This document shows, one piece after another, positions 1 through 7,019 of a stretch of 35,666 bases of DNA (positions within the stretch are counted from its first letter, which is position 1; every line of letters starts with the position of its first letter). The position numbers and the translations under genes are program-made. The notes under the pieces are model-generated. The model saw nothing but the letters and a program-made list of their open reading frames with translations. It was not told the origin of the DNA and did no database searches. Source of the DNA: Candidatus Dadabacteria bacterium (GTDB taxonomy: Bacteria; Desulfobacterota_D; UBA1144; Nemesobacterales; Nemesobacteraceae); NCBI GenBank assembly GCA_022826905.1, contig JAJDUA010000033.1, positions 1-35,666 of the forward strand, written 5' to 3'.

Positions 1-158
1 TGTGTATATGGCATCTGATAACCTCCTATGGTTTGCACTTTAGAGATTATCTTTGTCGCTTGGCCCTTTCAAATGAGGTGTGAGCCTCAAAGGGCTATAA
101 CCCTGTTCTCAGGGGTGTTGCACTTCGTAGTTCAACGGGCGAGATTTAATACCGACCA
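1..158 (+). promoter_or_regulatory. Probable CRISPR leader
   Basis: No gene is visible here. The stretch lies directly upstream of the first CRISPR repeat. The repeats end in ATTGAAGC, which in most CRISPR families marks the leader-distal end, so this side is where a leader should be. It contains nested inverted repeats: GCCCTTT at 63-69 pairs with AAAGGGC at 89-95, with GAGG (75-78) and CCTC (85-88) inside, followed by CCCTG (101-105) and CAGGG (110-114) around a 4-base loop. No further copy of the 36-bp repeat is seen, so position 159 is the array border. The leader role is inferred from position and orientation. Confidence 0.5.
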
Positions 159-339
159 ATTTTCCGAGGCAAATTGCCTCGGCCTCATTGAAGCTGTTCG
201 TAAATGGCAGCGTGCTGGCCGGCCTCAAGTATTTTCCGAGGCAAATTGCCTCGGCCTCATTGAAGCTGCCGAACACAGCGACCCTGTGCCACTCAGTGAA
301 TTCATTTTCCGAGGCAAATTGCCTCGGCCTCATTGAAGC
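159..339 (+). CRISPR. CRISPR array, three 36-bp repeats
   Basis: Three identical 36-base repeats lie at 159-194, 231-266 and 304-339, separated by unique spacers of 36 bases (195-230) and 37 bases (267-303). The repeat starts ATTTT, carries the perfect inverted repeat CCGAGGCAAATTGCCTCGG (7-bp stem, 5-base loop) and ends GCCTCATTGAAGC. Even spacing, identical repeats, an internal hairpin and the ATTGAAGC end are classic CRISPR features, read in plus orientation. No cas gene lies in the window, so subtype is not assigned. Open frames running through the array are accidental. After the third repeat the sequence runs into phage DNA; a fourth identical repeat lies at 3268-3303. Confidence 0.95.
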
Positions 340-375
340 GTGCACAGGGTCACGTCGTGAACGAACCATTGCCCC
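340..375 (+). other. Putative third spacer, phage-derived
   Basis: These 36 bases directly follow repeat 3 and have the length expected for a spacer. They match phage sequence 2516-2551 with a single mismatch (C343 versus T2519). No repeat follows at 376; the sequence carries on as phage DNA. Read in array orientation, the RNA would be complementary to the mRNA of the minus-strand phage gene it matches. Confidence 0.55.
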
Positions 376-443
376 GGCTGATCCTCCGTCTGGAACTCGA
401 CTATCCAGACTGTGGAGTGTTCAGTTTCCTTGCGCTGCTTCAT
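340..443 (-). pseudogene. Truncated copy of ~70-aa phage gene
   Basis: This is the 5' part of a second copy of the phage gene found complete at 2407-2619. It starts with ATG at 443-441 and reads MKQRKETEHSTVWIVEFQ and onward for 34 codons, nearly identical to the complete copy, with Tyr changed to Cys at the single mismatch near the end. It is cut off at 340, where the CRISPR repeat begins, so it lacks about half the protein. Function unknown. It lies downstream of the nuclease-domain gene (588-1190), in the same order as in copy B. Confidence 0.7.
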
Positions 444-587
444 TTGACTTCATGCTCCCAGACTGTAAGTTCTTTTGCAAGGTGTGCGGCAAAATCTCGT
501 TGCTTATGGCTGAGGGAATCCTGGACCCAAAAGTTCCGTAGAGGGGGCCGAGTCCTCTCGCACATCCGGAGGTGACCAGGCGACACC

Positions 588-1190
588 TCATTTTTTCTGC
601 CTCCGCAGCATCTTCCCCTTCTCTTTCTTCTTTTTCAGGTAGCGCGAAGGCTTTCCGGTCTTGGGGTCGATTTCTGGAAAGGTGAACAGGGTATCCATCC
701 ACAGCCCGTCTTTTTTTCTGTGGAACGGGAGGGCGTAATAGGTCTTTCCCTTTTTCAGGAAGAACTGCCGCTCGGTTTTGTCGGCGGCGGGCTCGATAAT
801 CATGCCGTCATCCAGGATTTCCTGCACCATCCCCATGTCCTCGAGATCAATGCCATGCTCGCGGATATGCTCCATTTTGCTTTTCTTCTTAATCCTGACG
901 GCCTGATATTCTGCTTGCCCCGTCAGTTTCTTCGTTTCCGGACTCAGCACCCCGACGGGAAACCGTCCCCCATCCTGCCCGTCGAAGAACCTCTTGAACG
1001 CCGGCCCGGTGACCGTGCCCTCGATGTACTTCTTCGCGATATCGTAGTCGTACTTCTCCAGGTCCGGCTGGTAGGCGGCCTTCCACTGGTTGTGATCGAA
1101 TCCCGCCCCCGGAAAGATCTTCCCGCCGCCCGGGAGCTTGTACCCCCAGACCGGCCAGACTTCCCCGGTTCTCTTGCTTATGAGTCGGTC
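588..1190 (-). pseudogene. Phage minor head protein C-terminus with PBECR nuclease domain (partial)
   Basis: The frame is open from a spurious start at 1571, but only about 1190 to 588 looks like phage protein; upstream it is antisense to a DUF1643 gene. The first part (GEVWPVWGYKLPGGG, then FPGAGFDHN and YQPDLEKY) resembles the end of Mu gp30/SPP1 gp7-type head morphogenesis proteins. The last ~100 residues (HIREHG near nt 869, then EILDDG, an ALPF strand and TLFTF) resemble the phage-fused Barnase-EndoU-ColicinE5/D-RelE (PBECR) nuclease domains known at the C-terminus of such proteins. The end is lysine-rich. The head part itself is missing, so the gene is partial at its 5' end. The assignment is by recognition, not by search; the 5' border is approximate. 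Confidence 0.6.
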
Positions 1191-1460
1191 TTCCCTTGCC
1201 GGATGGACATCGTGGGGCCTGAAAACGACCGCTATATTCTCGAGTGCGCGAACAGGGCTGATCCGGTTATCGCCGCGTGGGGAAGCCTTGACCGCCGTCT
1301 GAGGTGGCGGGCGGCCGAGGTCTTGAGAATGCTCGACGGAGAACTCCCCGCCGTCCGCATTCAGACGCTCGGGCTGACGAAAGGGGGTCATCCGCGACAC
1401 CCCCTCTACCTTAAGAGAGGAACCCTTCCCCGGCCCTTCATAGAGGGAATCAATGGCTGA
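1176..1460 (+). pseudogene. DUF1643 family protein, C-terminal part (partial)
   Basis: The frame reads DIVGPENDRYI, then VIAAWGSLDRR, then LGLTKGGHPRHPLYLKRG, the recognisable C-terminal half of DUF1643 proteins (VGPEND, VAAWG and LG.TK.GHPRHPLY motifs). DUF1643 proteins are of unknown function and occur in bacteria and phages. The N-terminal half is missing: before about 1176 the plus frame is antisense to the phage nuclease-domain gene, so two unrelated sequences are joined near 1175-1190. The stop overlaps the next gene in an ATGGCTGA arrangement (1453-1460), so the 3' end is a real translational unit. The 5' border is approximate. Confidence 0.65.
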
Positions 1461-1734
1461 CAGGATGATAACATACGTAATCATCGGACATTCGCGTGAC
1501 GGGTACTTATGTCGTGTAGGCAAAACGCGCATAGGTAAAATGTTGCCGGGTGATGATGATGTCCGGAGCACAAAACTGCCCGGCTGGAGTCTCTACCTGG
1601 GGAAATCGCGGGAGAGGCACTGGTTCCCTTTTCCTAGCAGGTTCGAGGCCGAGGAGCTGGCCGCCAGGCTGGAAGAAGGGTCCAAGCTGTGGTCGTTCGT
1701 CGTGGCGCCGATCGGGGTCAGGGGAGGAGCTTAG
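1453..1734 (+). CDS. Small uncharacterised protein, 93 aa
   Basis: Starts at ATG 1453 within the end of the DUF1643 frame (ATGGCTGA overlap), with GAGGG a few bases upstream. The protein has an ordinary folded-protein composition, with segments such as WSLYLGKSRERHWFPFPSRF and EELAARLEEGSKLW. I do not recognise a family. It is followed immediately by another small gene (stop TAG and next ATG adjacent), suggesting a plus-strand operon of three genes. The overlap arrangement and the antisense position to no known gene argue it is real. It is opposite in strand to the phage head genes on both sides. Confidence 0.55.
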   Translation: MADRMITYVIIGHSRDGYLCRVGKTRIGKMLPGDDDVRSTKLPGWSLYLGKSRERHWFPFPSRFEAEELAARLEEGSKLWSFVVAPIGVRGGA

Positions 1735-1959
1735 ATGTCCAAAAACTACCCTCTGTTGCTGTTGCACTTTTTTCGGGACCTGTCGTCGTCCGAGCGCATC
1801 CAAATTCTTGTTTCTCTGGGCGCCTTGCCGCCGGGAGGCGGGGGAAATCGCAGCGAGAACGAGACGGTCCAGCGTAACGCCTTCGATCGATGCGTGAGAG
1901 ATGGGGGTGGCAAAAGGCTTTGGACTCGTATACAGGACCTGAAAAGGGCAAGGGCTTGA
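1735..1959 (+). CDS. Small uncharacterised protein, 74 aa
   Basis: The ATG follows directly on the stop of the preceding gene (TAGATG), with a strong GGGGAGGAG ribosome site about 7 bases upstream. It begins MSKNYPLLLLHFFRDLSSSE, continues as a probable helical N-terminus, then a Gly/Arg-rich middle and a basic end (RIQDLKRARA). No family recognised. It ends two bases before the convergent gpG-type gene stop at 1961, a tight end-to-end arrangement or a junction between two sequences. Function unknown. Confidence 0.5.
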   Translation: MSKNYPLLLLHFFRDLSSSERIQILVSLGALPPGGGGNRSENETVQRNAFDRCVRDGGGKRLWTRIQDLKRARA

Positions 1960-1960
1960 T

Positions 1961-2419
1961 TCAACTCCCGCTTAAGTCTTTGTCGATGAGCCTTCTGAGC
2001 ACGTCGGCGATCTCATCCTCGTCTCCGGGAGTGAGTACGAGGAAGGGCCGCGGCGGAATCGTCACCTTCTTCCCTCTCCCCGCCTTGCCCCCGAAATGCT
2101 GCAGGGCCGCGTAGCGAAGGTTCGTCGACACCGTGGCCTCGTCCGAGGTGCTGTCCGCCTGAACTGACGCGGCGAGGTTCCCGAGTCTCTGCAATATCGG
2201 GTGCTCTGGACCGAACCCTTTCTCCCTGCGGTCCTCGACTGTCGCATCGGCAAGCGGCGTCCAGGGCGGCCGACCCTCCTTGTCGAAGTTCTCCTCCACC
2301 GCGTCAAGCATGATCCCCGCTATCTCGGTCATGGCTTCCGGCATGCCCTGCGTCCCCCTTTCCACGAGACGCGCAGCCAGGCCGTCTATCTCCTTAGTGC
2401 TGACCGCTATTCGGAACAT
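1961..2419 (-). CDS. Phage virion morphogenesis protein, Mu gpG-like
   Basis: 152 aa. Reads EIAGIMLDAVEENFDKEGRP, then PWTPLADAT, HPILQRLGNLAASV and, near the end, IPPRPFLVLTPGDEDEI. These are the marks of the phage virion morphogenesis family (Mu gpG, also called the tail completion/phage_tail_S family): a conserved W.pL...T, the IL..tG/LaaS turn and the I.aRPFL box before a final helix. In Mu-like phages it follows the minor head protein, as it does here (head-protein end at 2787-3267, a small gene, then this). The start at 2419 overlaps the stop of the upstream small gene by 13 bases, so translation is probably coupled. Length is normal. Confidence 0.85.
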   Translation of the reverse strand: MFRIAVSTKEIDGLAARLVERGTQGMPEAMTEIAGIMLDAVEENFDKEGRPPWTPLADATVEDRREKGFGPEHPILQRLGNLAASVQADSTSDEATVSTNLRYAALQHFGGKAGRGKKVTIPPRPFLVLTPGDEDEIADVLRRLIDKDLSGS

Positions 2420-2619
2420 CGGTTTTCCTCCTCTGCGATTTTAAACTCCCTGGCCCTGATCCCGGTTACGGATTCCTTATCTACCAGATGGTGAACCATC
2501 CTTTCTTTTTCCGGGGTGTACAGGGTCACGTCGTGAACGAACCATTGCCCCGGCTGATCCTCCGTCTGGAACTCGACTATCCAGACTGTGGAGTGTTCAG
2601 TTTCCTTGCGCTGCTTCAT
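2407..2619 (-). CDS. Small phage protein, 70 aa, unknown function
   Basis: Complete copy of a small gene, of which a truncated near-identical copy lies at 340-443. It reads WIVEFQTEDQPGQWFVHDVT then LYTPEKERMVHHLVDKES, a soluble protein with charged C-terminus. No family recognised. It sits between the minor-head-protein nuclease end and the gpG-like gene, overlapping the latter by 13 bases, so it is probably part of the head operon. The bases at 2516-2551 match the putative spacer at 340-375 with one mismatch. Confidence 0.65.
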   Translation of the reverse strand: MKQRKETEHSTVWIVEFQTEDQPGQWFVHDVTLYTPEKERMVHHLVDKESVTGIRAREFKIAEEENRCSE

Positions 2620-2628
2620 TTGACTTCA
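2516..2628. repeat. Phage duplicated block, copy B
   Basis: Second copy of the block at 340-452: 109 of 109 bases identical (2520-2628) plus one mismatch just before. It covers the 5' part of the 70-aa gene and a few bases upstream of its start. Copy B is embedded in an apparently continuous phage gene order, unlike copy A, which is cut by the CRISPR repeat. Confidence 0.9.
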
Positions 2629-2786
2629 CCCTCCCAGACTGTAAATTTTCTGTCAAGTGCGCGCGGCAAAATCTCGGACGCCGTTATGGATAGAGGCAAC
2701 CCTGGAGCCCGACAAAGTCGCCCCTGAGAAGGCAGGAGAGGGAATGCGAGTCCTCTCGCGCGCGCCCGAGGGAACCCGGCGACCCC

Positions 2787-3267
2787 TCAATTTCTTTCCT
2801 TCCGCAACACTTTCCCACGTTTTCTGAGCTTTTCTCTATCACCCTCTCCCTGATCCAGCCGATAGAAAGAAAGGAGGTTCCCTCCCCGCTTTCCGACCTG
2901 CAGGGGGATGAGATAGTGCTCGTCGCCTATTTTTCTGGTCAGGAGCACGTCCGCTTCCTTGCCGGGGTTAGTGAGGATTTCTCCGTTGTCCAGCATGTCT
3001 TGTACCTTGAGGAAGTCATTCGCGGTTGTCTCGGGATGGTCTTTCCTGACGTGAGTCTTCCTGTCTGCGTATATCCTGACTCCCTGCGCTTTCCCCGCCC
3101 CGACGATTCCCCTGGTCTCTGCGCTCATCACCCCGTCGGAACCGGGCAGATCGGCCAGAAACTCCGGGGAGCACCGGCAGGCTGTCAGATCCTCGCCGTC
3201 GCGAATTTCTTCGCACTCGTCGGGACAGCCGGGTTCCGGGTCCGGGAAGAATCGTTTGACTGGCAGC
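2787..3267 (-). pseudogene. Second phage minor head protein C-terminus, PBECR-like domain (partial)
   Basis: The frame extends to an ATG at 3281, but the first codons are encoded by the CRISPR repeat, so the native gene is cut at 3267. The readable part (about 160 aa) has a Cys-containing segment (PGCPDECEEIRDGEDLTACR), then GVMSAETRGIVG, HVRKDHPE, VQDMLDNGEIL, EHYLIPLQVGK and a lysine-rich end. This runs parallel to the other copy (SPETKKLTG, HIREHG, VQEILDDG, TYYALPF, lysine-rich tail), so both are divergent versions of one C-terminal nuclease-type domain. The head-morphogenesis part is missing. Same neighbours as copy A: the 70-aa gene follows. Confidence 0.55.
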
Positions 3268-3303
3268 ATTTTCCGAGGCAAATTGCCTCGGCCTCATTGA
3301 AGC
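3268..3303 (+). CRISPR. Solitary fourth CRISPR repeat
   Basis: All 36 bases are identical to the three repeats at 159-339 and in the same orientation. The sequence to its left (3232-3267) is phage coding sequence and would be spacer-sized; the sequence to its right (3304 onward) shows no further repeat. It is either the terminal repeat of the same array or a join created in assembly. Confidence 0.93.
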
Positions 3304-3333
3304 TCGCCATCGGTGATTACAAAAGAAAAGAGC

Positions 3334-3361
3334 AAAAAAAAGCCCCCGATTGCGAGGGCTT
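3334..3361 (-). terminator. Intrinsic terminator of the traT-mntA-hepT group
   Basis: On the minus strand the sequence AAGCCCTCG, loop CAAT, CGGGGGCTT forms a 9-bp stem with one G-U pair, followed directly by a run of eight T. It lies about 150 bases beyond the hepT stop and points leftward, so it would end transcripts from the HepT/MntA genes and shield the CRISPR side from them. Confidence 0.85.
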
Positions 3362-3507
3362 GGTTCTAATATAGACTACCTGCGAAACATTCGTTTCTTA
3401 TTATTGATAGTCATAATATTTCACTATCAACAACATTTTAACTGACTGAAAAGCGCCAGCTATTCACAACATTACTCTATTGCATGCAGACAGGTTCAGG
3501 ATATCAT

Positions 3508-3849
3508 CTAGCCGTTTAGTGGCACAGACGATTCAAGAGTATGAATCAGGCCAGGAATGTCTCGTTGTATAGTATTCCACACCCGTTCCAAATCCACTTG
3601 GAAATAGCCATGCACAAGGCGGTTCCGCATGCTTATAATTTTCTTCCATGGAACCTCAGGATGCGCTAACCTGGTTTCCTCTGTAATATGAGTTGCCGCT
3701 TCACCAATGATTTCAATAGATTTGAGAACAGCTTTCTGATGCAAGCGACTCTTCTCAAACTGATGAAATGTCAGACCATCCGCAAACTCTTCCACATCTT
3801 GAGCCGCATGCAACATGTCGAGCAAGAACGCAGTCTCATCACGCTGCAT
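3508..3849 (-). CDS. hepT: HepT-like HEPN ribonuclease toxin
   Basis: 113 aa, the usual size for HepT (DUF86). The C-terminal half carries R75-NRLV-H80-G-Y82, the R-X4-H-X-Y motif. In the HepT/MntA family, Arg and His form the RNase site of the HEPN dimer, and the Tyr is the residue the partner MntA modifies with AMP to silence the toxin. All three are present, so the toxin should be active and controllable. The start overlaps the mntA stop by 11 bases, as in the characterised hepT-mntA pairs. Its activity here is inferred from the family. Confidence 0.9.
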   Translation of the reverse strand: MQRDETAFLLDMLHAAQDVEEFADGLTFHQFEKSRLHQKAVLKSIEIIGEAATHITEETRLAHPEVPWKKIISMRNRLVHGYFQVDLERVWNTIQRDIPGLIHTLESSVPLNG

Positions 3850-4150
3850 AGAACACCTCGGCTGACTTTAGAATTGCTTCACGACGGATGTAATTTCGGC
3901 TCTTCTCAATAGCGGTGCGGGAGAGCAAATCAGTCTCCCTCCCCAGAATGCCGCTTAACTCCTCCTCCATGCTTACCATGCTAAGAAGACTGTGGGAGGC
4001 TTCCGGCCGAAAACGTACCATTACATCTACGTCGCTGTCCGGCCCGAAATCATCTCTAAGAACAGATCCGAAAAAGGCCAATTCCGCAATCTGCCACCGC
4101 TCGCAAAAGGCAACGACTTTTTCTTTCGGCACTTCTATCTGCAAACTCAT
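3839..4150 (-). CDS. mntA: MntA-type nucleotidyltransferase antitoxin
   Basis: 103 aa minimal nucleotidyltransferase. The signature is G28-S29, then ten residues, D40-V-D42, i.e. the GSX10DXD motif that binds metal and nucleotide. Family members AMPylate the Tyr of the partner HepT HEPN toxin. The next gene downstream overlaps its stop by 11 bases and encodes that partner. Only 43 bases separate its start from the traT-like gene upstream on the same strand, so it may be read from that promoter or from a short local one. No strong ribosome site is visible at this ATG. Confidence 0.9.
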   Translation of the reverse strand: MSLQIEVPKEKVVAFCERWQIAELAFFGSVLRDDFGPDSDVDVMVRFRPEASHSLLSMVSMEEELSGILGRETDLLSRTAIEKSRNYIRREAILKSAEVFYAA

Positions 4151-4193
4151 TATCTAGTCTCAAGCAACTTGGTCTTCTTCAAAACTCATAACC

Positions 4194-4967
4194 TCAGAAA
4201 ATCCCGCCTATAGATCTTACAAGACCCGCCTGAAGATGAGGTTTCGCCTCCTCAAAATCCAGGTTCGCCTTGTTGGCAACGCTCACAATCCTGGTCCTGT
4301 ATGTCTTCCATTTCACGTTATCAGTACGAGAAGTCTGCGTTACCCGAGTCGAGGTACCCTGCTGAGCGTCCGTGTCCTCACTCTGCGATACAACTTCTCC
4401 TTCTTGGACGCGCTCCCTTATCTGAATATCTGTTACCATCGTGAAAAGGTCATCAGTGACCAGCGCATCGAATAAAAAGCCCGCAACTCCACCCGCAATA
4501 GCGCCCGCAACGGTGCCCTTGTTAATCTCGTCAACATCTCCGCCTATGGCCCCGCCTATTACTCCTCCGAGAACGGCACCTTCAACCACGCCCTGATAAC
4601 CTTCTCCAAGCATAGCATTCGTCTCCTCGAGATCAGACTTTCCGACATTCAGAATGTTGGCCTGGAGAATGAAAGTCGCATCAGCCGGGTCTTCCGTGAT
4701 CCTGTAACCGTTAGAAGCTATTCTCCCTTTGATTCCATATTCAATTCCGGGCAGTTCCTTGTCCGTCGTATTTTTTATATCGACGTAAACAACTCTTTCT
4801 TCGGGCGACACCGGTTCAAGAAAAATCGTCTCCGACATTTTAGTTTCAACGTTAAGTTTCCTTTTCTCGATAAGGGTTCTGGTCGCCGCGCAGCCGTTTA
4901 CAAGAAAAACAAAACAGATCGCAGCCGCGAAAAACAGGTTTCTTTTACACATAAGCTCTTTTTTCAT
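4194..4967 (-). CDS. TraT-family outer-membrane lipoprotein
   Basis: 257 aa. A basic N-terminus and hydrophobic stretch end in VNG-C26, a lipobox, so the mature protein should be a lipoprotein with Cys26 as its first residue. The body matches the TraT (complement resistance/surface exclusion) family: an early RTLIEKRKLNVETKMS segment, the DIKNTTDKE stretch, and a central glycine-zipper hydrophobic region (GGVIGGAIGG, then GAIAGGVAG). In plasmids TraT blocks mating at the outer membrane; chromosomal homologues are of unclear role. GAGGAG lies 9-10 bases before the ATG. There are no transfer genes around it, so surface exclusion is not implied. Confidence 0.85.
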   Translation of the reverse strand: MKKELMCKRNLFFAAAICFVFLVNGCAATRTLIEKRKLNVETKMSETIFLEPVSPEERVVYVDIKNTTDKELPGIEYGIKGRIASNGYRITEDPADATFILQANILNVGKSDLEETNAMLGEGYQGVVEGAVLGGVIGGAIGGDVDEINKGTVAGAIAGGVAGFLFDALVTDDLFTMVTDIQIRERVQEGEVVSQSEDTDAQQGTSTRVTQTSRTDNVKWKTYRTRIVSVANKANLDFEEAKPHLQAGLVRSIGGIF

Positions 4968-5158
4968 TGATCAAGACTCCTCGGGATTTTATTGCCGGGT
5001 AAAACTTCCGACCTTCCAAACTAAAATCGTATGTAAAAAAGAAAGAAAAAACAAATAGAAAAAAATGCGTGGAGAATTTTCGCCGCCCCGTGGTTGCCAG
5101 TTAGAAATACGAAACAAAAAATCACGCCCTGTTCCTCCCTTCAAGTGGCCCAAAAACC

Positions 5159-5186
5159 TTGCCAATGCAAATCAATCTAGTATGAT
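5159..5186 (+). promoter_or_regulatory. Sigma-70-type promoter for aspS
   Basis: TTGCCA (5159-5164) and TATGAT (5181-5186) are separated by 16 bases. Transcription would begin near 5193, giving a ~30-base leader before the aspS ATG at 5223. Found by eye from the consensus only. Confidence 0.45.
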
Positions 5187-5222
5187 TAGCCAATCCTTCT
5201 TTGCCGGGAGAATCCTGAATAA

Positions 5223-7019
5223 ATGCTAGAACTTATGGGAGAGTGGAAAAGATCGGATTTCTGCGGAAAGCTCGGAAAAAAACACGTTGACCGCTCCGTT
5301 ACCCTTATGGGCTGGGTACAGTCACGAAGAGACCATGGCGGGGTGATTTTTGTTGATCTGCGCGATAAGGAAGGTCTTTGCCAGATCGTTTTTAACCCCG
5401 AGCACGACCCTAATATCCACCAGACCGCTGAACAGTTGCGGGATGAATGGGTAATCGCAGTGAAAGGAACTGTAACTCCCCGGACCGAGGAAACTGTAAA
5501 CCCGAACCTAAAGACCGGTGAGATTGAGGTGATAGCCGAGCAGGTAAAGATCCTTAACACATCAAAAGTAATACCGTTTCTCATAGAAAACGAAGTGAAC
5601 GCCGATGAGCTTCTGAGACTCAAGTACCGCTACCTCGACCTCAGAAGACCCCCAATGCGGGACAACATAATCTTTCGTCACAAAGTCGCCGCCGCGGTGC
5701 GAAGCTACCTTAATGAAAACGGGTTTCTCGAGATCGAAACCCCCTATTTTACGAAATCGACGCCTGAAGGGGCAAGAGACTTCCTCGTTCCGAGCCGACT
5801 TAACGAAGGTCAGTTCTACGCGCTTCCCCAGTCGCCCCAGATATTGAAACAGACTCTCATGATCTCGGGTTTTGACAGATACTACCAGATAGTTAAATGC
5901 TTCAGGGACGAAGACCTAAGAGCCGACCGCCAGCCCGAATTCACCCAGATAGACATGGAGATGTCGTTTGTCTCAGAAGACGACGTGATCTCAATTGTCG
6001 AAGGCATGATAAAAACAGTTCTTCGGCAAACAAGAGGGATTGACGTAAGCATTCCTTTTTCGAGAATGTCTTATGAAGAAGCCATGGAGAGGTACGGAAC
6101 CGACTGCCCCGATACAAGATTCGGTCTTGAATTAAAAGATATTTCCTCCATATTCCGTGACTCGCAGTTCAAAGTTTTTCGCGGAGCTCTTGAGAAAGGC
6201 GGAGCGATAAAGGCGCTTAACCTCAAAGGAGGAGCTGAAAAGCTTACAAGAAAAGAAATAGACGACCTTACGGAGTACGCAATCTCGCTCGGAGCAAAAG
6301 GGCTTGCGTGGATAAGGGTCGGCGAGGACGGGTGGAACTCCCCCATAGTCAAGTTTTTAAGCGAAGAGGAACGCGAGCTTCTGGCCGAGGCCCTTTCGAT
6401 GAAAAAAGGAGACATAGTGTTTTTCGGCGCCGACTCGGTTGATATGGTAAACCAAGTGATGTCAAGCGTAAGGCTAAGTCTCGGTCAAACTCTTTCTCTC
6501 ATTGACGAAGAAAAACTTGAATTTCTCTGGGTAGTTGATTTCCCGCTTCTTAAGTACAGCCCCAGAGACAAAAGATACGTCGCCGTCCACCACCCTTTTA
6601 CCGCCCCAAAGGATGAGGACGTGGAAAAAATTGAGAATTCCCCAGGCGACGCGGCTTCAAAATCTTACGATATAGTCTTAAACGGTGTAGAGATAGGTGG
6701 GGGAAGCATAAGAATCCACAGAAAAGACATACAGCAAAAAGTGTTTGGCGTTATAGGAATCGGAGAGGATGAAGCAAGAGAAAAATTCGGTTTTCTCCTC
6801 GAGGCTCTTGAATTCGGAGCCCCCCCGCACGGAGGCATAGCACTCGGTCTTGACAGGCTTTTGATGCTTCTCTCGGGCGGGGAATCGATAAGAGATGTAA
6901 TAGCTTTTCCAAAAACGCAGAAGGGATCCTGTCCCTTGACAGAAGCTCCCTCGGAGGTTTCCCCGGAACAGCTCCTTGAAGTTGGAATAAACAGTATTGC
7001 GAAAAAACCAGAAGACTGA
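5223..7019 (+). CDS. aspS: Aspartyl-tRNA synthetase (bacterial type)
   Basis: 598 aa, the normal length of bacterial AspRS. It charges tRNA-Asp with aspartate in the cytoplasm. Seen: N-terminal anticodon-binding OB fold (VTLMGWVQSRRDHGGVIFVD), class II motif 2 (FRDEDLRADRQPEFTQID, residues 227-244), the bacterial GAD insertion (roughly 290-420), and motif 3 (GIALGLDRLLMLL, 538-550). GGGAG lies upstream of the start used; a second Met four codons in is possible. Whether the enzyme also charges tRNA-Asn cannot be told without checking for asnS or gatCAB elsewhere. Flanking genes are unrelated core genes. Confidence 0.97.
   Translation: MLELMGEWKRSDFCGKLGKKHVDRSVTLMGWVQSRRDHGGVIFVDLRDKEGLCQIVFNPEHDPNIHQTAEQLRDEWVIAVKGTVTPRTEETVNPNLKTGEIEVIAEQVKILNTSKVIPFLIENEVNADELLRLKYRYLDLRRPPMRDNIIFRHKVAAAVRSYLNENGFLEIETPYFTKSTPEGARDFLVPSRLNEGQFYALPQSPQILKQTLMISGFDRYYQIVKCFRDEDLRADRQPEFTQIDMEMSFVSEDDVISIVEGMIKTVLRQTRGIDVSIPFSRMSYEEAMERYGTDCPDTRFGLELKDISSIFRDSQFKVFRGALEKGGAIKALNLKGGAEKLTRKEIDDLTEYAISLGAKGLAWIRVGEDGWNSPIVKFLSEEERELLAEALSMKKGDIVFFGADSVDMVNQVMSSVRLSLGQTLSLIDEEKLEFLWVVDFPLLKYSPRDKRYVAVHHPFTAPKDEDVEKIENSPGDAASKSYDIVLNGVEIGGGSIRIHRKDIQQKVFGVIGIGEDEAREKFGFLLEALEFGAPPHGGIALGLDRLLMLLSGGESIRDVIAFPKTQKGSCPLTEAPSEVSPEQLLEVGINSIAKKPED

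What the first reader, a model, noticed from the sequence alone, without database searches (positions are those of the whole stretch)
159..3303. Phage DNA bounded on both sides by identical CRISPR repeats
Repeat 3 ends at 339 and phage sequence begins at 340; phage sequence ends at 3267 and repeat 4 begins at 3268. Both borders hit repeat edges to the base, and the phage bases next to each repeat are spacer-sized candidates. The two sites differ, so a single crossover with a circular phage (which would duplicate the same spacer on both sides) does not explain it. Either two spacers were bridged to their targets in assembly, or a double recombination replaced the middle of the array with phage DNA. 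The second would be a route for phage to disable an array that targets it.
Basis: partly seen in the sequence, partly recalled or inferred. Interest (0 to 1): 0.85.

Follow-up and report, generated by a model that had tools for sequence, protein, structure and literature searches.

The report
Phage DNA inside a CRISPR array
A 2.9-kb piece of mostly virus DNA sits exactly between two CRISPR repeats at the oldest end of a bacterial immune memory array; the evidence favours a real, shrunken insertion over an assembly mistake, and a sister species carries similar virus pieces at the same place.

Summary
The reading changes. (1) The window is one end of a single 20-repeat type I-G array split by an insertion-sequence-like element; the insert fills the last, leader-distal slot, not the middle. 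(2) Assembly bridging of two spacers to their targets is disfavoured: contig ends overlap by exactly 141 nt, 0 of 72 simulated spacer-plus-phage assemblies joined a border, and neither border shows the TTN PAM seen at both protospacers identified. (3) A sister species (G011) has related phage gene ends between its last repeat and the trailer; G012 has none there. (4) A 109-nt exact direct repeat and a junction cutting two divergent genes suggest a captured fragment, later entry of a related phage by homologous crossover, and a large deletion; how the first fragment met both repeat edges is unsettled. Array inactivation is not supported. No raw reads were available; I put assembly error at about 0.2.

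The parts
1..141 (.). right end of an insertion-sequence-like repeated element; the contig breaks here
   Evidence: matches 5 other places of 103-144 nt in the genome (C59, C53, C41, C14, C3), all at contig ends, and a 40-nt piece on C51; exactly 141 nt shared with the end of C59
142..158 (+). right part of a spacer split by that element (other part, 23 nt, on contig C62; 3-nt duplication AGA; 37 nt when closed)
159..339 (+). CRISPR repeats R1-R3 (159-194, 231-266, 304-339) with two normal spacers of 36 and 37 nt
340..3267 (.). phage-derived insert in the last spacer slot
340..443 (-). 5' part of a small phage ORF, cut at 340 by repeat 3
   Evidence: same as 2516-2619 with one mismatch
344..452 (+). 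direct repeat copy 1, 109 nt exact
477..597 (+). structured small-RNA gene, copy 1 (promoter-like TTGACT upstream, terminator-like hairpin at the end, both by eye)
588..1197 (-). C-terminal part of a MuF (gpF) gene; the MuF domain part is missing
   Evidence: homologous to L002 and L003 gpF from the same residue
1197..1203 (.). internal junction cutting two divergent genes at their 5' parts
1203..1460 (+). C-terminal half of a DUF1643 gene
   Evidence: PF07799 positions 69-134 of 134, E=6e-13
1453..1734 (+). small ORF, 93 aa, no family
1735..1959 (+). small ORF, 74 aa
1961..2419 (-). phage tail-completion protein (Mu gpG-like), full length
   Evidence: PF05069; 81% identical to L002 over residues 2-151
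2416..2619 (-). small ORF of the gpF-gpG interval, second copy (at least 68 codons)
2520..2628 (+). direct repeat copy 2, 109 nt exact
2654..2796 (+). structured small-RNA gene, copy 2 (different type)
2787..3267 (-). C-terminal part of a second MuF gene of another toxin type, cut at 3267 by repeat 4
   Evidence: 73% identical over 142 residues to G012 contig C69
3268..3303 (+). CRISPR repeat R4, last of the array
3304..3378 (+). array trailer with terminator-like hairpin, part of it conserved in G011 and G012

Best explanation
The structure is real and is the remnant of phage DNA lodged in the last, oldest slot of a type I-G array. Most likely history: (1) a phage fragment of about 750 nt (start of a small ORF, small-RNA gene, toxin end of a MuF gene) came to lie between the last two repeats, joined exactly at their edges; (2) this fragment served as homology, and a related MuF phage integrated by one crossover in the small ORF, which leaves the 109-nt direct repeat and puts gpG next to the second copy; (3) most of that phage was lost in a deletion with ends at about 1197/1203, cutting gpF and DUF1643. 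Shown: the borders, the array context, the direct repeat, the junction, and the related case in G011. Inferred: that reads support the joins, and steps 1 to 3. Step 1 is the weak point: exact edges on both sides are what Cas1-Cas2 chemistry or integration at a repeat would leave, but no PAM, no integrase and no phage-borne repeat was found. The third and fourth rivals below are in part answers to how step 1 happened, so the odds overlap.
For: Single 20-repeat array: C62 (cas genes, leader, 16 repeats) and C57 are joined through one 37-nt spacer split by an element with a 3-nt duplication. Final graph k=141: three pairs of contig ends share exactly 141 nt; a contig at that k runs unbroken over both borders. 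In a simplified iterative de Bruijn assembler, 0 of 72 runs with true spacers plus free phage joined even one border (30 runs, 42 runs); with a real insert 16 of 24 runs joined at least one border and 8 of 24 both. G011 has related phage DNA (77-78% over the matched pieces 443-633 and 987-1070) between its last repeat and the shared trailer; G012 has array then trailer, no phage. Both protospacers found for genus spacers have a TTN flank (2 of 51 spacers, 49 distinct, against 33 sequences), the motif published for type I-G (PMC9638904, one passage seen); border B has CAG, AGC, GCC, CCG or CGG for lengths 39-35, and the paralogue of border A has GGG. The gene order fits a one-crossover entry through the small ORF; loop-out of the 2,176-nt unit would leave 752 nt. 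In the fetched stretches of L002 and L003 there is one gpF followed by gpG.
Against: No raw reads or depth were available. The assembler is inferred from overlaps, and my simulation leaves out its local-assembly step and strain mixtures; at host depth 10 it failed to rebuild even a real insert over both borders (0 of 4 runs) and joined one border in 1 of 4, so the low-depth chimera runs say little. The donor phage was not found (best gpG 81%; no match in the phage collection), so the natural flanks of 340 and 3267 are unknown and the PAM of border A rests on a paralogue. G011 lacks a repeat on the right side and its last repeat differs in the final base, so the two cases are not identical. Phages with tandem toxin cassettes could give the direct repeat without a second integration. 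The gene fragments in the insert are open, unlike an old relic. Only one genome per species is held.
Confidence: 0.45

Rival explanations
1. Assembly chimera: the true array holds ordinary spacers A (340 onwards) and B (ending 3267) that match one phage, and the assembler walked from spacer A through the phage to spacer B.
For: Borders exact to the base, as expected for spacers; arrays are where host and phage share k-mers; 34 nt of the A border recur exactly inside the insert; the arrays of the genus do target such phages (G012 spacers 8 and 11).
Against: A final k of 141 does not join on 36 shared bases by itself; 0 of 72 simulated assemblies (weak at low host depth); natural phage continuations would be expected to break the contig; no TTN PAM at B or at the paralogue of A; the same kind of phage region lies at the same trailer in G011.
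Confidence: 0.2
2. Double homologous recombination: two real spacers A and B recombined with their protospacers, so the array between them was exchanged for phage DNA.
For: Explains two different, exact borders; recombination between phages and CRISPR loci is known in staphylococci (recalled; paper not held).
Against: Needs two crossovers in about 36 nt each; both candidate spacers lack a TTN PAM, A by its paralogue; does not by itself explain the internal junction or the 109-nt direct repeat.
Confidence: 0.15
3. Kilobase-scale acquisition: Cas4/1-Cas2 joined the ends of one or two long phage fragments to the two sides of a repeat, making a giant spacer; end joining in the middle gives the internal junction. 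As an account of the first fragment only, this is a sub-case of the best explanation.
For: A duplicated repeat with both edges exact is the product of Cas1-Cas2 integration (established knowledge); the Cas4/1 fusion and Cas2 are present; two fragments joined in the middle would explain the truncated divergent genes; G011 also shows two head-to-head fragments.
Against: Normal spacers of this array are 35-39 nt; the paralogue of the PAM-side border has GGG, not TTN; the one literature search for unusually long spacers returned 0 papers.
Confidence: 0.2
4. Site-specific or repeat-mediated prophage integration: a phage with a CRISPR-repeat-like attachment site integrated at a repeat, as reported in Streptococcus pyogenes, and then lost its middle.
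For: Gives repeats on both sides, different flanks, no PAM, and an internal deletion; prophage integration into arrays is mentioned in PMC10359306 and the S. pyogenes paper is in the reference list of PMC10651486 (passages seen).
Against: No integrase among the six insert ORFs scanned (ORF 1735-1959 and the small ORF were not scanned); no genus-type repeat in the viral collection (exact and relaxed pattern); both borders cut phage genes (small ORF and gpF), which one attachment site would not do.
Confidence: 0.12

Closest known systems
Prophage integration into CRISPR loci, Streptococcus pyogenes (Varble 2021; title seen only in a reference list; not held; details recalled)
   Same: phage DNA bounded by CRISPR repeats in a host array
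   Different: there, as recalled, a complete prophage with integrase in a type II-A array; here a 2.9-kb remnant with no integrase found, in the last slot of a type I-G array, with two different cut genes at the borders
Recombination between phages and CRISPR-cas loci, staphylococci (Varble 2019; recalled, not held)
   Same: exchange between array and phage sequence
   Different: there, as recalled, driven by spacer-target identity; here the candidate spacers lack the expected PAM
Insertion sequences inactivating CRISPR-Cas (PMC10359306, passages seen)
   Same: mobile DNA in a CRISPR locus; this array too carries an insertion-sequence-like break
   Different: the paper's survey is of insertions into cas genes, not phage DNA between repeats
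MuF polymorphic toxins of temperate phages (PMC5576092, passages seen)
   Same: MuF protein with variable C-terminal extension (in the relatives L002 and L003)
   Different: the paper infers small immunity ORFs downstream; here a structured RNA gene lies convergent to the toxin end

Membership tests
Type I-G CRISPR-Cas locus | Cas7g, Cas5-6g, Cas8g, Cas3g, Cas4-Cas1 fusion, Cas2 with adjacent array | tested here: met
   PADLOC models Cas1g 5.8e-188, Cas2g 3.4e-30, Cas8g 7e-61, Cas3g 7.7e-157, Cas56g 3.8e-116, Cas7g 2.2e-42 on C62; Cas4 and Cas1 domains in one ORF
Type I-G CRISPR-Cas locus | TTN PAM at protospacers | tested here: met
   TTC and TTA at the two protospacers found, both for G012 spacers; 2 of 51 spacers (49 distinct) of four genomes had a match with E below 0.001. 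Only two cases, none for a G000 spacer
Ordinary acquired spacer (borders A and B) | TTN next to the protospacer | tested here: not met
   B: CAG, AGC, GCC, CCG, CGG for lengths 39-35; A: GGG in the paralogue at 2513-2515, the true flank being unknown
Ordinary acquired spacer (borders A and B) | length 35-39 nt | tested here: not met
   repeat-to-repeat distance is 2,928 nt; applies to the insert as a whole
Prophage integrated at a CRISPR repeat | repeat on both sides of phage DNA | tested here: met
Prophage integrated at a CRISPR repeat | integrase and repeat-like attachment site on the phage | tested here: inconclusive
   no integrase among six insert ORFs scanned; no viral contig with the repeat; the donor phage itself is unknown
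Spacer-target homologous recombination | both borders are real spacers of the array | tested here: inconclusive
   exact repeat edges fit; PAM absent; empty array of the same strain not available
Assembly chimera | no molecule crosses the borders | not testable with these tools
   no raw reads; indirect evidence against it
MuF polymorphic toxin gene | MuF N-terminal domain with variable C-terminal extension | tested here: inconclusive
   MuF domain present in the relatives L002 and L003 (PF04233) but cut off in both window copies; toxin domain only a sub-threshold PBECR3 match in L003 (E=0.005, 17.1 against a cut-off of 30 bits)

The most novel reading that the evidence does not exclude
A CRISPR adaptation complex with a fused Cas4-Cas1 can seat kilobase-scale phage fragments between repeats; such a giant spacer then acts as a homologous landing pad for related phages, and what is kept is not a guide but the phage small-RNA genes it carries, which may protect against the phage's own MuF toxin.
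Probability: 0.12. Interest if true: 0.9.

Novelty: new variant of a known kind. Interest (0 to 1): 0.5.

Why it matters
If real, it shows that an array can carry kilobases of phage DNA between intact repeats without loss of its leader side. It makes testable whether type I-G adaptation can take in long DNA, and whether array-borne phage sequence lets phages recombine into the immune locus. It also shows how contig-overlap and assembly-graph arguments can weigh such structures against artefacts when reads are not at hand.

Tried and rejected
Rejected or left: a single crossover at one spacer (borders differ). A phage-borne repeat: exact and relaxed patterns gave 0 viral contigs. Self-matching spacers: none of the other spacers of this genome matches the insert significantly. 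The donor phage: no match in the phage collection (DNA; second MuF end as protein); best viral relative 81% in gpG; the scan with the ORF of the first MuF end returned one locus at 38% (it missed L002 and L003, which one search shows to match); the scan with the second MuF end confirmed none of 3 candidates. A context for the DUF1643 fragment: four viral loci at 39-44% identity, none with a gpG match. The 93-aa ORF: one weak viral locus, no other of 40 genomes. A genome-collection scan with the two viral MuF proteins gave five distant loci; they did not match the small-RNA model. A likeness of the phage paralogue at 2506-2516 to the first 11 bases of the repeat (9 of 11; six such sites on the plus strand of the window outside the array, 14 on the minus strand of the whole window) sits on the wrong side for an attachment site and is treated as chance. 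A first toxin/small-RNA comparison (Mantel r 0.41, p 0.027) used misframed translations and is withdrawn; one search replaces it. One search's protein search returned nothing because of a file fault and was repeated. Literature searches for spacer-target recombination and for unusually long spacers returned 0 papers each.

Limits: one genome per species; no reads; assembler inferred; simulation is a simplified model; two key papers not held.
Full report
What is there. The window is the whole of contig C57 (35,666 nt) of a 69-contig, 1.78-Mb genome, 93% complete. The same repeat occurs 16 more times, all exact, on contig C62, with 15 spacers of 35-39 nt and a full set of type I-G cas genes upstream.

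One array, not two. C62 ends and C57 begins in repeated elements that recur at other contig ends. Their inner edges leave 23 nt after the last C62 repeat and 17 nt before the first C57 repeat, sharing AGA; closed, they make one 37-nt spacer. The locus is therefore cas - leader - 16 repeats - inserted element - R1 R2 R3 - insert - R4 - trailer. Four of the 13 genomes of the genus searched carry this repeat type (G000, G010, G011, G012); in all four the array lies beside the MNT/HepT, TraT and aspS region. Leader and cas side come first, so the insert is in the oldest slot, by the general rule that new spacers enter at the leader.

What the insert is. Reading down the minus strand from repeat 4: the end of a MuF gene (toxin type 3), a small-RNA gene, a small ORF, full-length gpG, three plus-strand ORFs of which the last is only the C-terminal half of DUF1643, then at 1197/1203 the end of another MuF gene (type 2), a small-RNA gene and the start of the small ORF, cut at 340. 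In the fetched stretches, viral contigs L002 and L003 have one MuF gene followed by gpG, and they align to the window MuF gene only up to 1196, so the insert is not a contiguous piece of such a genome. The 109-nt exact direct repeat (344-452, 2520-2628) brackets a 2,176-nt unit.

Artefact or real. Of the 13 contig ends compared, three pairs share exactly 141 nt and two further pairs share 122 nt. This is the mark of a de Bruijn graph with k=141, which I recall as the usual last step of MEGAHIT. At that k a 36-nt spacer does not by itself join array and phage, and a phage present at similar depth would be expected to break the contig at both borders. In a simplified multi-k assembler written for this purpose, true spacers plus free phage gave no joined border in 30 runs and 42 runs. 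A real insert gave at least one joined border in 16 of 24 runs and both in 8 of 24. It failed in all 4 runs with as much free phage as host, and at host depth 10 without phage it joined one border in 1 of 4 runs and both in none, so the absence of chimeras at low depth carries little weight. The model omits local assembly and strain mixtures. This is an argument, not proof.

PAM. Of 51 spacers (49 distinct) from four genomes, compared with 33 fetched sequences, two match viral loci with E below 0.001: G012 spacer 8 on L003 (37 nt, 6 mismatches) and spacer 11 on L002 (27 nt, 3 mismatches); their flanks are TTC and TTA. TTN is the published type I-G PAM (PMC9638904, one passage seen). Border B has no TTN for any length from 35 to 39, and the paralogue of border A has GGG. 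This speaks against both the chimera and the double recombination through ordinary spacers. It also speaks against Cas4-guided capture at border A, though work on Cas4/1 suggests PAM slipping and possible nonspecific integration for unprocessed ends (PMC10504553, passages seen).

Independent case. In G011 the last repeat (final base changed) is followed by phage DNA: a small ORF, a small-RNA gene, a type 2 MuF end, then head to head a type 1 MuF end with a frameshift and a second small-RNA gene, then the trailer. There is no repeat on the right side. G012 goes from the array to the trailer with no phage DNA; in G010 the last repeat runs into the MNT/HepT region and the trailer motif is not found. 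So the trailer end varies in this genus and holds MuF phage pieces in two of the four species, in the same orientation nearest the array. I cannot tell whether this is one old event or two.

Mechanism. The simplest history that meets gene order, direct repeat and junction is a captured fragment, a later one-crossover entry of a related phage through the small ORF, and a large deletion. How the first fragment met both repeat edges exactly is open: Cas1-Cas2 chemistry gives such edges but not such lengths; integration at a repeat gives the edges but needs an integrase or a phage-borne repeat, neither seen in what was searched. The rival odds overlap with the best explanation at this step and do not add to one.

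Function. The insert does not touch the leader side of the array. At most the last spacers are affected, and the inserted element upstream may already do that. What recurs across dispersed copies is the small-RNA gene. A covariance model built from 15 copies, 13 of them from 8 genomes of this genus, finds it in those 8 of 13 genomes and in 1 of the other 47 genomes searched (G020, filters that lose weak matches); in 20 other loci it finds only the two viral contigs used to build it. In its structure 13 of 22 pairs have changes on both sides, and 45 cells do, against 14.5 (sd 3.6) in shuffles and 1-12 in slid controls; the number of further pair types, 26, does not exceed the shuffles (26.1). 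The single-sequence fold of one copy was no better than shuffles (z -1.03). The RNA sequence type follows the type of the neighbouring toxin end (8 modules, Mantel r 0.65, p 0.002), although physical linkage alone can cause that. This is the ground for the RNA-immunity side of the novel case; nothing here tests function.

Verdict. Observation confirmed; probably real (I put assembly error at about 0.2); mechanism unsettled; no support for array inactivation. Claims about literature rest on passages in five held papers; the two closest precedents are not held and are cited from recall.

Noticed in passing
window 477-597 and 2654-2796; L064 4389-4514 and 5269-5392; L002 1259-1383; L003 4827-4954: A structured small-RNA gene of about 125 nt (no Rfam match up to E=0.5 in window 1-5300) between gpF and gpG of MuF phages, convergent to the toxin end, with solo copies on chromosomes of the genus; its type follows the toxin type. 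Possible RNA antitoxin or immunity gene.
   Followed up: partly
L067, L069, L064 (4365-4389), L065: sequence just upstream of the small-RNA promoter: Four copies start right after the T-run of an intrinsic-terminator-like hairpin, including the CRISPR trailer hairpin in G011; in G006 (L071) matching hairpin arms lie on both sides of the copy (by eye).
   Followed up: partly
G008 contig C45, 37653-37727 (L049): An isolated C-terminal end of gpG (25 residues, 88% identical).
   Followed up: no
G010 contig C7 (L057, 2920-2990): The last repeat is fused to the HepT/MNT region, apparently with loss of the trailer, at a short shared sequence; an N gap lies in the first spacer region.
   Followed up: no
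window 3508-4150: HepT/MNT-type toxin-antitoxin pair directly behind the array trailer, with related DNA in G011 and G012.
   Followed up: partly
window 2506-2516: Phage sequence next to the paralogue of border A resembles the first 11 bases of the repeat (9 of 11), the only such plus-strand site in 300-3300 outside the repeats.
   Followed up: partly
L064 6216-6403: G011 array starts with three identical spacers in a row.
   Followed up: no
L104 1501-1627 (G020, another family of the same order): Solo copy of the small-RNA gene between a gene that looks by eye like a restriction-modification enzyme and one that looks like lipB.
   Followed up: no
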